In this document: positions 1-6,500 of the stretch, piece after piece
How positions within the stretch are numbered: position 1 is the stretch's first letter
Layout of the letters: every line of letters begins with the position of its first letter
Assembly: GCF_032854445.1 (NCBI RefSeq)
Contig: NC_088305.1
Coordinates: forward strand, 7,879,606 to 7,943,605
Source of the DNA: Liolophura sinensis
Lineage: Eukaryota; Mollusca; Polyplacophora; Chitonida; Chitonidae
Direction: 5' to 3'
DNA length: 64,000 nucleotides
Program-made: the position numbers and the translations under genes
Notes under the pieces: generated by a model
The model's input: only the letters and a program-made list of their open reading frames with translations
Database searches by the model: none
Told to the model about the DNA's origin: nothing

Positions 1-540
1 ATGGTCAAGGAGTGAGCTTAGAGAGCCAACTTTTTTAGTTATTTTAGTGTCATTATTTTGAGAATAATGGCCAGTGTAGCAACTACGAAGTCCAGATCTA
101 CTGTCCATGTACAACAGGTATGTTCAAGGAGTGAGCTTAGAGAGCCAACTTTTTTAGTGATTTCAGTGTTATTATTTTGAGAATAATGGCCAGTGTAGCA
201 ACTACGAAGTCCAGATCTACTGTCCATGTACAACAGGTATGTTCAAGGAGTGAGCTTAGAGAGCCAACTTTTTTAGTGATTTCAGTGTCATTATTTTGAG
301 AATAATGGCCAGTGTAGCAACTACGAAGTCCAGATCTACTGTCCATGTACAACAGGTATGGTCAAGGAGTGAGCTTAGAGAGCCAACTTTTTTAGTGATT
401 TCAGTGTTATTATTTTGAGAATAATGGCCAGTGTAGCAACTACGAAGTCCAGATCTACTGCTCATGTACAACAGGTATGTTCAAGGAGTGAGCTTAGAGA
501 GCCAACTTTTTTAGTGATTTCAGTGTTATTATTCTGGTAC
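1..540 (+). repeat. 119-bp tandem array of a WxxW exon end, its splice donor and intron
   Basis: The period is 119 bp. Four complete copies of a 70-nt exon-like segment lie at 48-117, 167-236, 286-355 and 405-474. Each is preceded by a TTTTTTAG...TTTCAG-like acceptor and followed by GTATG. The frame reads as the C-terminal strand of a WxxW/CysD domain (NGQCSNYEVQIYC), ending in phase 1. That matches the exon at 1477, which starts with two bases of a codon. The array is cut by the window edge, so more copies probably lie upstream. A fifth unit begins near 475 and diverges after about 534. Confidence 0.85.
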
Positions 541-3500
541 TGAATTCAATTTGTTTGTTACGCTGCTCTCAAAACAATGATGCAAAGATGGCCAGGTTTG
601 TTATTAATATTTCAATACATTTGTAAAACTTATTTTGCAGTGCATAAAAATCCGGCAATAAGTCATAATAATCAAGATTGTTAATTACATTAAAACTTGT
701 GTAAACTGATCATGCCAAATACCACAAGAAAATGTCGGTTTATGGAAGTTCTTTGGGCAGCAACTACAAGAAGTCACTTAGATTGTACAGACTAATAACT
801 AAGGAAAATAATGTTTATATTTGTCTCAAATTTTATTTCTGTGAACTTGAAATAGGACAAAAGAAGTAGTACTTACCCAGGTAAAACTGCTCCTGCTTTT
901 CAATATGGCTGCCCACACTTCATTCAAAATTGAACTTGTGTTGAAAAATCTAGTGCTGGTTTTGAGAAAGTCTAGCAATACTGAATAAGTTGAACTTATC
1001 AGTTGGACATTTCCAACAACGTCTCTTACTCCTAGCAGGTTGATCAGCCATGGTTGCTTCAATGAAATATGTGAAACAAAGTGACAGAAAAAAACATAGC
1101 AATACTGCATTACTTCCTTCCCTGAATTGCTCAATGTCATCTCAGCTGATGGTTAACACGAAGTGAAATGTACCGATCAAAATCAAGTTTATGAGAATGT
1201 CTATTAATTAGAGAAATTTATCACCAAGAGGATTATTTCCCTTCTCTGACCTCTTCTTCCCCAAGCGGTGATAACATGCACTAGATACAATGGAGACTGG
1301 AAATTGCAGGTGGTATTCACAATAGACAAGTGTCCGTTTATTCAATAAAATAACGTGTTGTGAACGGAGGTAAAAGAATTAGAGAGTTGGCAAGTTTTAC
1401 TGCATAGATGTATGTGTATTGTAACATAAATCAGAACGGCATTTTGAAGTCATTTTACTGGACTTTTTTGCTTCAGTTTCACCACACATACCACCTTCTG
1501 TGTCAGGAACACCACAACCCACAACACCACCTACTGGTTCTCCTACACCATCTCCTACAACAGGATCTACCATGTCACCCCGAACTGTGTCAAGTTCAGT
1601 GACTTCAGGAACACCACATACAGGGTCACCACGCACACAATATTATGTGTCAGGAACCCCACATCCTACAACAGGGTCTACTGGTTCTCCTACACCATCT
1701 CCTACAACAGGATCTACCGTGTCACCCCCAACTGTGTCAAGTTCAGTGACTTCAGGAACACCACCCACAGGGTCACCACCCACACCATATTTTGTGTCAG
1801 GAACCCCACATCCTACAACATGGTCTACTGGTTCTCCTACACAATCTCCTACAACAGGATCTACCGTGTCACCCCCAACTGTGTCAAGTTCAGTGACTTC
1901 AGGAACACCACAAACAGGGTCACCACGCACACCATATTCTGTGTCAGGAACCCCACATCCTACAACAGGGCCTACTGGTTCTCCTACACAATCTCCTACA
2001 ACAGGATCTACCGTGTCACCCCCAACTGTGTCAAGTTCAGTGACTTCAGGAACACGACACACAGGGTCACCTCCCACACCATATTTTGTGTCAGGAACCC
2101 CACATCCTGCAACAGGGCCTACTGGTTCTCCTACACAATCTCCTACAACAGGATCTACCGTGTCACCCCCAACTGTGTCAAGTTCAGTGACTTCAGGAAC
2201 ACCACAAACAGGGTCACCACGCACACCATATTCTGTGTCAGGAACCCCACATCCTACAACAGGGCCTACTGGTTCTCCTACACGATCTCCTACAACAGGA
2301 TCTACCGTGTCACCCTCAACTGTGTCAACATCAAGAGTTTGCGGCTGGACACCGTGGATGAATGGGAACGTGCCTGGAAATGAAGGAGAGGTGGAGAATA
2401 TTCCAAGTCTTCGTAGGATGTACACATTCTGTCGTTCAGAAGACATCACTGCAATTGACTGCCGTATCGTCGGTTCAGAGGCAAATCTGGAAACAGACGT
2501 TATCTGCAATCTTCAGTACAATGGTCTTATTTGTGATAACACTAAACAACCATCTGGAAAATGTTCTAACTATGAAATCAGGGTTTATTGTGAGCCACAG
2601 GGGGTCACGTGCCCAGTGTCTCCAGTCAGTGTGGTTACAGTATCTCCACCCACAGGATCTACTAGGACAGGATCACCACAACCCACAACACCACCTACTG
2701 TTTCTCCTACACCATCTCCTACAACAGGATCTACCATGTCACCCCCAACTGTGTCAAGTTCAGTGACTTCAGGAACACCACACACAGGGTCACCACCCAC
2801 ACCATATTTTGTGTCAGGAACCCCACATCCTACAACAGGGTCTAGTGGTTCTCCTACAAGATCTCCTACAACAGGATCTACCGTGTCACCCCCAACTGTG
2901 TCAAGTTCAGTGACTTCAGGAACACCACACACAGGGTCACCACGCACGCCATATTCTGTGTCAGGAACCCCACATCCTACAACAGGGCCTACTGGTTCTC
3001 CTACACGATCTCCTACAACAGGATCTACCGTGTCACCCCCAACTGTGTCAAAATCTACTATCAGTCTTTCAGGTAAGATTGTGGTTTTTCGAAGTCCTAT
3101 TTGGTGTTTCAGGGTTGTATAAAATGCAAGGGAATCATAAATCATCCGTATATTAATGGCAAAGCTACATCTATGAGATGAATACTTGGAAACTGAGAAA
3201 TGTGGTGGACCCTGTGGTAAATATCAACAGTCACATTCCAAATTATGCATTTTTTTTCACTGAAAGGTTTTCACAGTGAACATAAATCTGTTAGCTATTT
3301 GCCCAAGGGTCAAGGGCTCATTACGAACACTTTTGTTTTTGGCCACTCATGAAACTAAACAGGGTAATTTGAACTGCATTTTGGAAAGTCAATCAATCGA
3401 TCAATAATTTATGATGTATTTTTATACTTACAGCAAATTGCACTTTGAGCATGCAGATGGTTCAGCACAGCAGCAACTCAACGACCATCCGCGGTAGCTC

Positions 3501-6500
3501 CTTTGCTCCCCAGAATGCTGTTCTGCAGGAGGCATCTTCATGGATGCCATCAGTGGATAATAAAGACCAGTATGTTGAAGTGGATTTCGGCCGTTCCTGG
3601 CTTCTGACTGGTGTGACCACCCAGGGAAGGGGAAGCATACCGAATTATGTGAAATCATACACTGTTGAGTACGCCTACAATACTCACCACTGGAACACCT
3701 ACCAGGAGAAGCAAGGTGTTGACAAGGTAAGGAAGGAGGAGCATACCCAGTTATGTGACCTATTGAGTACACCTACAGTACTCACCACTGGAACACCTAC
3801 CAGGGGCAGCCAGGTGTTGACAAAGTAAGGTAGGGGAGCTTATTCATTTATGTGCCCTATTGAGTATGCCTACAGTACTGACCACTGGAACACCTACCAG
3901 GGGCAGCCAGGTGTTGACAAGGTAAGGATGGGGAGCATATATCTAATTATGTGACCTAATGAGTACGCCTACATTACTCACCACTGAAACACCTACCAGG
4001 AGCAGCCAGGTGTTGATAAAGTAAGAGAGGAGGAACATACCTAATTACGTGATCTCATACACTGTAGAGTTTTGTTTGTTGAAGATCACTTGTCTTCCAC
4101 CAATATGCTGTGCTCTGTTGTGGGTATATGTTGGAAAACTTTGTTAATAATTTGCTTAGAAATTTGTGCTGCACAATCACTCAAACTAACAGCCAGGGTG
4201 TGGGCAAAAAATTCTTTAGTATGGTGTTGAACTGCAATCAATCAAATAATTAGAGGAAAGTTGTCAGGTACATGTGCACAATGAAGGGTGGTTACTACAA
4301 ACCCTGCTGTTTCGACACCATGGCCTCTAAACCCTCCTGTTTTAACACCGTTGACTCATCTATGCCTCTCATTTCAGATCTTTACAGCCAACAATGATTC
4401 CACCACACCTGTGACCAACTGGTTCAGTAAACCAATCAGAGCTCAGTTCATTCGGATCCGACCCAAGAGCTGGCAGAATAAAATAGCACTTCGATTTGAT
4501 ATCCTTGGTTGTTACACAGCACAAAGTAAGTGCATTTGATATCATTGGTTGTTACACAGTGCAAAGTAAGTGCATTTGATATCCTTGGTTGTTACACAGC
4601 GCAAAGTTAGTGCATTCGATATCCTTGGCTGTTACACAGCGGAAAGTAAGTGCATTTGATATACATGGTTGTTACACAGTGCAAAGTAAGTCCATTTGAT
4701 ATCCTTGGTTGTTACACAGCGCAAAGTAAGTGCATTTGATATACATGTATATACTTAGACAAAAGCCAGTTTGTTTGTATCTGACCCATAAGCTGGGAGA
4801 CCAGACAACATTCTGCTTCAATGTCCTTGTTTTGCTACATAACAGAAAGTTGTTGGAGTTAAAATAAATTCTTTGACAAAGCAGATGTCACCTGAAAGCA
4901 CATGTGGGACACAGCATACACTTCCCCCAACATGTAGTGTTTTATCTGTTCAAATTTTTTCCCTTCATGTAGAGGTAATAGTTTGTGTGGCCATTCAACA
5001 GCATATGGATAAAGATAGTTTTGTAAAAAAAACCTGTCATTTTCATATATGATACTTTAGATTTTATTTTACAATAAATTCGGTACATGTATGCCAGATT
5101 AGATTGGGCCACCATAAATCCTGTGACCACATTTTATGTGTACTTGGTTTCAGCAACAAGTACTCTCCGTGTTTCGCAAACAACACCAGTGACTACCACA
5201 GAGGTGACAACGCCTGTTACAGAACAAGGTACTGTCAGTTTAGCGTTGAACATGGTTATTGACACATCACGTTTGGTTGCAGATTCGCTTAGGTTTGCAC
5301 TGATTTCATTTCACATGCCAAATGTGATTTGAGAAATTTGGTTGGATTTTGGAGGTTTTGATTTATGTCTGCTGAGTCAAAAGGAGTATGGCTCCATTTT
5401 GCTAAATTCAATTTGATTATGACAGCGCATGTGTGCAGCACTCACATTTCCTGAGCTAGACTGAAGTGTGACGTACTGTAACACCAGAAACGGTACTGAA
5501 CTATGTCAAACCGTGTTGATACATGTATGTAATATTGGAATTGGAAAAAATTTATTCCAGTTATATAAAAATCAAATTCGAATTTATGCAAATTAAATGA
5601 AATCTATTTGTGGTGTCATTGGTTGTTTTTCTTTGTACATGTACTTTTGTCACAGTACCAGTTTTTCACACTGTCCCATTATTCTGTTTTAGTGCATTAA
5701 GTTTCTCCTATCGCTCATGGCATTTAAACTTTATATGTTTTCATAAATAAATTATATTTATTATAAATTAAGAAAACGAGTAGTGAAATTGACCTTGATT
5801 AAATCCTGCAATTAGCACAGTTTGCACAGCTGCAGTATGGTCATCTTCAAAATATGAATGTGTTAAAGACTAAAGTAAACAATTATAATGCTCTCTGTTC
5901 ACCCAGACTGCATTAAATGGGGAGCGTGGATTAACAATCACCACCCAACCCCAGGGAATAAGGGAGACATTGAGCCAATTGAACAGGTGCATGGACCTTG
6001 CCAGCAGCCAATGGAAATCGAGTGCAGGACTTCAAGCCCAGACAAGACCCCCCACAGGCTGACAGGACAGAAGGTCGGCTGTAATCTATGGACAGGGCTC
6101 ATCTGTAACAACAAAGACAATGCCCCACTCTGCTTTGATTACGAAGTCCGTGTGGGATGCCTGAAGCTTACACCAGAGTGCAGTGAGTATGACATTTTGA
6201 CTGCTACCCTATTTCTTCTAAAATTTGGGACACCTGGTCTGCTCATTTTAGCCAATGTATATGTAACTCTAGCAGGAATATTGAGTTTTTCTCATATGGC
6301 TAGACCATCTAATGAACAATATTCTCATATGTTTACTTTTCCAAGATTGTAGGCTGGGAAAGAAATGTAATATTCTACTTTCAACACTATTAGGATTTAG
6401 GATTAGGGTATTTAGATTGTCTGTCTGCCTTTAGTGTAAGGTGGAAGAGAACAAAACAAAAAATTTGCATTAATTGTCAGCAGAAAAACCTCTGAAATTA

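What the first reader, a model, noticed from the sequence alone, without database searches (positions are those of the whole stretch)
1..4748. Three separate tandem arrays in one gene each duplicate an exon end together with its 5' splice site
Within 5 kb, three arrays with different periods (119 bp at 1-540, about 97 bp at 3640-4065, 40 bp at 4489-4748) all have a unit made of the last part of an exon plus the GT donor plus a little intron. The sequences are unrelated, so the common factor is position over a donor, not sequence. This puts 4, 4 and 6 consecutive donor-like sites in a row. Possible readings are replication or R-loop slippage at exon-intron borders, tolerance because the first donor suffices, or tandem donors acting as splicing decoys or buffers. 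I do not know a described system of this kind.
Basis: partly seen in the sequence, partly recalled or inferred. Interest (0 to 1): 0.78.

Follow-up and report, generated by a model that had tools for sequence, protein, structure and literature searches.

The report
Minisatellites copying splice donors in chiton
In a chiton, short DNA repeats have grown over the ends of exons so that one splice site becomes many, yet only the first copy gives a readable protein; such repeats were already known from amphioxus, but here they turn up at about three in a hundred of the exon ends sampled.

Summary
Array 1 is cut by the window edge: it has 14 donor copies, the real one 1.07 kb upstream of the window. 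Arrays 2 and 3 have 4 and 6. The gene is mucin-like (WxxW, F5/8C domains), in a chiton that I infer is Liolophura sinensis. Joined at the first donors the exons stay open; each of the 21 inner donors gives a premature stop.

They are not special to this gene. In 260 kb of dynein and EGF loci, 10 of 57 arrays span a donor (hand-read), 3 duplications span an acceptor, 1 array seems to hold a short exon. Random founder placement predicts 1.9-3.6 donor hits (P 0.0002-0.012 for the 9 strict hits). Against this, random intron points are repeated as often as donors (5.0% against 4.5%).

Inner donors decay like their neighbours (GT kept in 122 of 142; other dinucleotides 85%), so decoy function is unsupported. 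Best reading: neutral minisatellites, harmless because exon definition picks the first donor; a mild mutational bias towards donors remains possible.

The parts
1..533 (+). Array 1, 3' portion (119 bp unit: about 61 nt exon end + 58 nt intron). The whole array is C11:7878472-7880138, 14.0 copies; the true exon end and first donor (C11:7878533) lie upstream of the window.
118..480 (+). Last four of 14 donor copies of array 1 (GT at 118, 237, 356, 475; CAG|GTATGT/GG)
1477..3072 (+). Next exon: Pro/Thr/Ser-rich 147-bp coding repeats and a WxxW domain; donor GT at 3073
3434..3726 (+). Exon, first part of F5/8 type C domain; true donor GT at 3727, phase 0
3665..4025 (+). Array 2 (97 bp unit: about 62 nt exon end + 35 nt intron), donors at 3727, 3825, 3922, 4021
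4378..4525 (+). Exon, second part of F5/8 type C domain; true donor GT at 4526, phase 1
4494..4742 (+). Array 3 (40 bp unit: 32 nt exon end + 8 nt intron), donors at 4526, 4566, 4606, 4646, 4686, 4726
5154..5228 (+). Next exon; the joined frame stays open only with the first donor of array 3

Best explanation
These are mirage-type minisatellites. A segment covering an exon end, its 5' splice site and some intron was duplicated in tandem and then expanded by ordinary unequal exchange or slippage. The first copy stays the working exon end; all later copies are removed as part of the intron. They are harmless because the exons are recognised across the exon (exon definition), so the donor nearest the upstream acceptor, i.e. 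the first, wins. By the mirror argument the last acceptor copy wins at acceptor arrays. The inner copies then drift and homogenise like any intronic minisatellite. Shown: the arrays, the true first donors, the open frame with first donors only, the recurrence in other loci, the neutral decay of inner donors. Inferred: which donor is used in RNA, exon definition in this animal, and the expansion process.
For: Joining the exons at the first donor of all three arrays gives an open frame of 842 aa with 0 stops; each of the 13, 3 and 5 inner donors, with the other two arrays at their first donor, gives a premature stop. Use of the second donor gives a stop or a frameshift in 12 of 12 donor arrays examined, 3 of this gene and 9 of the sample (the tenth sample array, L014, was not examined). 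Inner copies keep GT in 122 of 142 (0.859) against 0.854 for other dinucleotides in the same flanks. 80% of 260 gaps between successive supported exons exceed 250 nt, as do 9 of 9 donor-array introns measured, 8 of 9 with the array left out. In published minigenes two identical CAG/guaagu donors 52 nt apart, in exons flanked by 365-nt introns, were spliced exclusively at the upstream one (PMC9225289, passages). Amphioxus mirages are reported not to disturb regular splicing (PMC3087553 and PMC3902484, passages). Donor-spanning arrays recur in 8 of 23 sampled loci (from my hand list).
Against: No RNA was available, so use of the first donor is inferred from frame only. If arrays were merely tolerated, donors should be hit at the random founder rate, yet 9 strict hits stand against 1.9-3.6 expected (P 0.0002-0.012), so tolerance alone may not explain the placement. 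In human transcripts the upstream donor is preferred in only about 60% of competitions between donors of near-equal strength, and the downstream donor in about 60% of all competitions (PMC9225289, passages), so exclusive first-donor use is not assured. In three arrays (L006, L008, L027) the copies right after the first have a broken GT, which could hint at selection against the nearest competitor; numbers are small.
Confidence: 0.72

Rival explanations
1. Donors are mutational hot spots: tandem duplication is started more often at 5' splice sites, for instance by transcription-coupled or R-loop-linked slippage, so placement over donors is a property of how the arrays arise.
For: 9 donor-spanning arrays by the strict rule (10 with one whose first copy has diverged, 11 with the array that seems to hold a whole short exon) of 57, where founder placement predicts 1.9-2.7, or 3.6 if exon interiors are barred. 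In the replicate specified beforehand, of 9 arrays 1 spans a donor, 1 an acceptor and 1 seems to hold a short exon.
Against: In the homology scan, before hand reading, 13 of 286 donor windows (4.5%) and 9 of 286 acceptor windows (3.1%) have a nearby copy, against 40 of 807 random intron points (5.0%): no excess over intron DNA by this measure. I think that measure favours introns, because all copies of an expanded array count as intron points while a donor counts once, but this is an argument, not a test. Small sample of two gene classes, home-made exon calls, unblinded hand reading; hits cluster (L006 and L027 are one gene) and two of the three replicate genes already had hits. Acceptors are hit at about expectation and 10 to 3 is not significant. 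The octamer test does not discriminate: 16 donor-octamer arrays against 14 reversed-control arrays on C1 0-67 Mb, counted by hand from the listings, with singles 26,582 against 29,090.
Confidence: 0.17
2. The tandem donors are functional: decoys, buffers or regulators of splicing or of unproductive isoforms.
For: Many inner donors are still intact (GT kept in 122 of 142). Human IFI6 uses two downstream repeat units of a minisatellite as donors (PMC4526556, passage).
Against: Inner donors are kept no better than adjacent bases; all 21 inner donors tested in this gene give premature stops; unit lengths and sequences differ between loci.
Confidence: 0.05
3. Chance only: a region very rich in tandem repeats (32%) happens to have three arrays over donors.
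For: Repeat coverage 31.8% in 38 kb here against 7.3% in 260 kb sampled. In the 10 kb further upstream (L030) I found no further donor-spanning array. 15 of 23 sampled loci have none.
Against: The founder unit, not the array length, must contain the donor; the rough expectation is 0.39 for this gene (P 0.007), and independent loci exceed founder placement too.
Confidence: 0.17
4. Assembly artefact.
For: Long arrays can be mis-sized; the paper gives 14X HiFi data with a mean read length of 8.3 kb (PMC11068029, passages).
Against: Mean read length exceeds every array measured here (longest about 3.1 kb); copies of most donor arrays differ from each other by point changes; many independent loci show the pattern.
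Confidence: 0.03

Closest known systems
Mirages, minisatellite-like tandem duplications of exon-intron borders in amphioxus (Adh3, globins BflGb6 and BflGb9, troponin C, PGBD5)
   Same: Tandem units of 10-160 bp that include an exon end or start, its splice site and some intron; unit lengths differ between genes; many copies keep AG/GT; the authentic border is told apart from its copies; both donor and acceptor sides occur (PMC3087553, PMC3902484, passages).
   Different: Host is a mollusc; copy number reaches about 57 donor-like copies (L027) although some arrays have only two; occurrence counted over 286-344 sampled exons; splicing and length polymorphism, reported in amphioxus, not tested here.
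Human IFI6 (6-16) minisatellite providing multiple splice donor sites (Turri et al. 1995; title seen in the reference list of PMC4526556, paper not read)
   Same: A minisatellite at an exon end gives several donors.
   Different: In IFI6 two downstream repeat units are used as donors to make coding variants (passage). Here all 21 inner donors tested in the mucin-like gene break the frame.
Internal tandem repeats at exon-intron boundaries in human segmental duplications (PMC2812944, passages)
   Same: Minisatellites at exon-intron borders of several genes; 27 intron modifications reported.
   Different: There the focus is repeat variation between paralogs and formation of new introns.
Intron gain by tandem duplication of AG/GT (Rogers model, seen as cited in PMC3087553 and PMC2812944)
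   Same: Tandem copies of a splice site lie in one gene.
   Different: Here the arrays extend an intron at its 5' end; no new intron is shown.

Membership tests
Mirage minisatellites | Tandem repeat whose unit spans an exon-intron border | tested here: met
   3 of 3 arrays of the finding and 10 hand-read donor-spanning sample arrays
Mirage minisatellites | Copies carry AG/GT splice signals, many but not all | tested here: met
   GT intact in 122 of 142 inner copies of 13 donor arrays
Mirage minisatellites | Units of different length and sequence at different loci | tested here: met
   Donor-array periods 21-127 bp with different sequences
Mirage minisatellites | Regular splicing undisturbed | tested here: inconclusive
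   Only the first donors give an open frame; no RNA available
Mirage minisatellites | Length instability between alleles | not testable with these tools
   One assembly only (G000)
IFI6-type minisatellite with used tandem donors | Inner donors give productive transcripts | tested here: not met
   21 of 21 inner donors of the mucin-like gene give premature stops; tested by frame, not by RNA
Intron gain by tandem duplication | The duplication creates a new intron in a formerly continuous exon | tested here: inconclusive
   Array-bearing EGF and dynein exons are seen in paralogs, but intron age was not tested

The most novel reading that the evidence does not exclude
5' splice sites of this chiton are preferred birthplaces of tandem duplications, seeded several times more often than neighbouring intron DNA and more often than acceptors, through a process tied to transcription or splicing. 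On this reading thousands of donors would carry such arrays, forming a standing pool for new exons and introns in a protostome.
Probability: 0.13. Interest if true: 0.72.

Novelty: new member of a known kind. Interest (0 to 1): 0.45.

Why it matters
In the papers I saw, mirages are described from amphioxus genes. Finding the same structure at about 3% of sampled donors in a mollusc with a chromosome-level HiFi assembly offers a large natural experiment on how the first of many identical donors is chosen, and on whether splice-site duplication feeds exon and intron gain. It also warns annotators: gene finders may take inner copies as exon ends, as my own simple one did at several loci.

Tried and rejected
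Rejected: (1) amphioxus as source. The mitochondrial code and gene order are invertebrate-type (AAA=K, ATA=M; nd2-cox1-cox2-atp6), which alone would not exclude amphioxus (recalled), but assembly size and scaffold number match the chiton paper. The GFP family search was empty, and its controls rang nowhere, so it says nothing. (2) Array length times donor density as null: arrays grow by insertion, so I took the founder unit (period minus 7). (3) The first automatic tally of 8 donors and 2 acceptors of 249 exons: hand reading dropped L021 885, L023 7191 and the false exon L025 1235 (its donor and its acceptor), and added L008, L009 and L014, later L006 8930 and the acceptor copy L005 918. (4) The homology scan (28 of 40 matching) listed 21 donor and 18 acceptor windows of 344 loose exons, 13 and 9 of 286 strict ones. 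I dropped L020 (paralogous EGF exons, 4 donor and 4 acceptor rows), L015 8802, L021 1039, L023 7235 and 7441, both L028 rows and L026 5471, and rows that are copies inside an array already counted. Random intron points gave 40 (downstream) and 36 (upstream) of 807. Arrays that only abut a site (L004 5184, L015 8792, L021 5097, L023 1154, L029 3606) were not counted. (5) Whole-genome triple AGGTAAGT against its reversed control: 672 against 509 matches, but 16 against 14 arrays on C1 0-67 Mb; not discriminating. (6) A selective purge of the second donor: suggestive in 3 arrays, not tested further.

Literature searches for this kind. No mollusc case over a splice site was seen in those listings; an abalone gene has an intronic minisatellite that the passages do not place on a splice site (PMC6905558, passages). 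The library holds open-licence papers only. Canestro 2002, Turri 1995, Yuasa 1998 and Rogers 1989 were not read; titles and citations seen in reference lists.

Full report
Identity. The window lies at C11:7879606-7943605 of a 609,464,459-base, 632-contig assembly. Mitochondrial cox1 reads with the invertebrate code, in the order nd2-cox1-cox2-atp6 (genes other than cox1 named from recall). The size and number match the published chiton assembly of 609.5 Mb and 632 scaffolds, first called Liolophura japonica and later corrected to L. sinensis (PMC11068029, passages; PMC12441733, whole text). I infer that species.

Anatomy. TRF confirms the three arrays. DNA upstream of the window shows that array 1 runs from C11:7878472 to 7880138 with 14.0 copies of 119 bp, starting in the true end of an exon encoding a WxxW domain (PF13330, E 4.9e-23). 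Arrays 2 and 3 cover the ends of the two exons that make one F5/8 type C domain (PF00754). Exonic and intronic shares of the units are 61+58, 62+35 and 32+8 nt. Further domains nearby are more WxxW, an LDL-receptor class A domain and a cystine knot, which fits a secreted mucin-like protein; that all 38 kb (L030, L001, window 1-22000) are one gene is assumed. This stretch is 31.8% tandem repeat against 7.3% in 260 kb of other loci. In L030 there are WxxW exons, two of them near-identical to each other by eye, and I saw no array spanning their donors.

Which donor works. I joined the exons in a script. With the first donor of each array the frame is open for 842 aa without a stop; each of the inner donors (13 + 3 + 5), tried with the other arrays at their first donor, gives a premature stop. 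So only the first donors are productive. This is inferred from sequence, not seen in RNA.

Is it special to this gene? I took 23 pieces of 10 kb from 15 dynein heavy-chain loci and 8 EGF-rich loci, chosen by density of Pfam matches (two of the EGF pieces may belong to one gene). Then came three continuation pieces of dynein genes and L030 as a replicate specified in the notebook before fetching, chosen for repeat content; two of the three dynein genes already had hits. Exons were found by similarity between paralogs and a small gene finder: 286 well supported, 344 with a looser rule, in 260 kb holding 57 arrays (TRF score 50 or more, period 7 or more). I read the arrays by hand, not blinded. 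Ten span a donor: L005 (86 bp), L006 (34 bp, and a 93-bp array whose first copy has diverged so that TRF starts 67 nt later), L008 (28), L009 (86), L010 (37), L014 (21), L023 (98), L025 (127) and L027 (53). Acceptor side: L026 (a 34-bp, 3.1-copy stretch joined to a degenerate 48-bp array counted as one), L027 (116 bp, 16.4 copies) and a two-copy duplication in L005 that TRF does not list. One array in L027 holds what looks like a whole short exon with both sites; I read GGRLLIRLGD as a dynein motif from recall. In all, 8 of 23 loci have a donor-spanning array and 3 of 23 an acceptor-spanning duplication (from my hand list). L030 added none.

More than chance? For an array to span a donor, its founder unit must contain it. 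With unit length minus 7, uniform placement predicts 1.9-2.7 donor hits; barring exon interiors gives 3.6. The 9 hits by the strict rule have P 0.0002-0.002 and 0.012 respectively; 10 or 11 hits have P 0.004 or 0.0013 against 3.6. Acceptors (2 to 4, by rule) fit the expectation. Donor against acceptor is 10 to 3 (P 0.09), or 13 to 3 with this gene (P 0.02), the latter biased because this gene was picked for its arrays.

Results against an excess. A scan for repeated 40-base windows, before hand reading, found copies for 13 of 286 donors (4.5%), 9 of 286 acceptors (3.1%) and 40 of 807 random intron points (5.0%). By this measure donors are not hit more than intron DNA. I give it less weight because every copy of an expanded intronic array counts as an intron point while a donor counts once, but I did not test that argument. 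A whole-genome check with a strong donor octamer did not discriminate either: 672 triple matches against 509 for the reversed word, but 16 against 14 arrays on C1 0-67 Mb, with 26,582 and 29,090 single matches. Further limits: two gene classes, clustering within genes, home-made exon calls.

Are the inner donors under selection? In 13 donor arrays, inner copies keep GT in 122 of 142 (0.859); other dinucleotides in the same flanks are kept at 0.854. That is neutral decay: neither decoy maintenance nor a general purge. In L006, L008 and L027 the copies nearest the real donor are broken; this is noted but not tested.

Mechanism. The sampled introns are mostly long: 80% of 260 gaps between successive supported exons exceed 250 nt, median 435 (missed exons would make this an overestimate). 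In that regime splice sites are thought to be paired across the exon. Published minigenes with two identical strong donors 52 nt apart, flanked by 365-nt introns, used the upstream one exclusively, while in human transcripts at large the upstream preference among near-equal donors is about 60% (PMC9225289, passages). So a row of donors is expected to do little harm, and the added copies lengthen the intron. The mirror argument, which is mine, predicts that the last acceptor wins at acceptor arrays; the real acceptor is indeed the last copy in L026 and L027.

What is known. Amphioxus genes carry mirages, minisatellite-like tandem duplications of exon-intron borders on either side, reported not to disturb regular splicing and proposed as a source of new introns (PMC3087553 and PMC3902484, passages). 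Human IFI6 has a minisatellite two of whose units serve as donors (PMC4526556, passage), and human segmental duplications have repeats at exon-intron borders (PMC2812944, passages). The chiton arrays fit the mirage description in anatomy; splicing and polymorphism are untested here. I saw no mollusc case over a splice site in the listings, within an open-licence library.

Verdict. A real feature, correctly described in essence, of a known kind, in a new phylum as far as I could search, and not rare. Whether donors are hit in excess is open and testable; decoy function is not supported.

Noticed in passing
L027:9181-10000: 125-bp array, 6.6+ copies running off the piece, whose unit seems to hold a whole 32-nt exon with acceptor and donor (GGRLLIRLGDR, dynein-like from recall).
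   Followed up: partly
L027:183-2094: Acceptor-side mirage: 16.4 copies of 116 bp, each with a strong acceptor and about 15-25 nt of exon start; the real acceptor is the last copy.
   Followed up: partly
L026:6589-7304: Compound, partly degenerate array of acceptor-like units ending in the true start of an EGF exon.
   Followed up: partly
window 1479-2328 and 2668-3051: 147-bp coding repeats (Pro/Thr/Ser-rich) inside the mucin-like exon, in frame.
   Followed up: no
L030:3601-4183 and 5482-6098: Two near-identical tandem copies of a WxxW exon region upstream, with no array spanning their donors.
   Followed up: no
G000:C99 and C632: Contig C99 (108,685 bases) holds seven cox1 matches about 15.5 kb apart: it looks like a head-to-tail concatemer of the mitochondrial genome, probably an assembly product.
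   Followed up: no
arrays in L006 (4352-5016), L008 (8304-8428 on the reverse strand as oriented for the gene), L027 (2752-5844): Donor copies directly after the working donor have a broken GT; most later copies are intact in L006 and L027, while L008 has only two inner copies, both broken. Possible selection against the nearest competitor.
   Followed up: no
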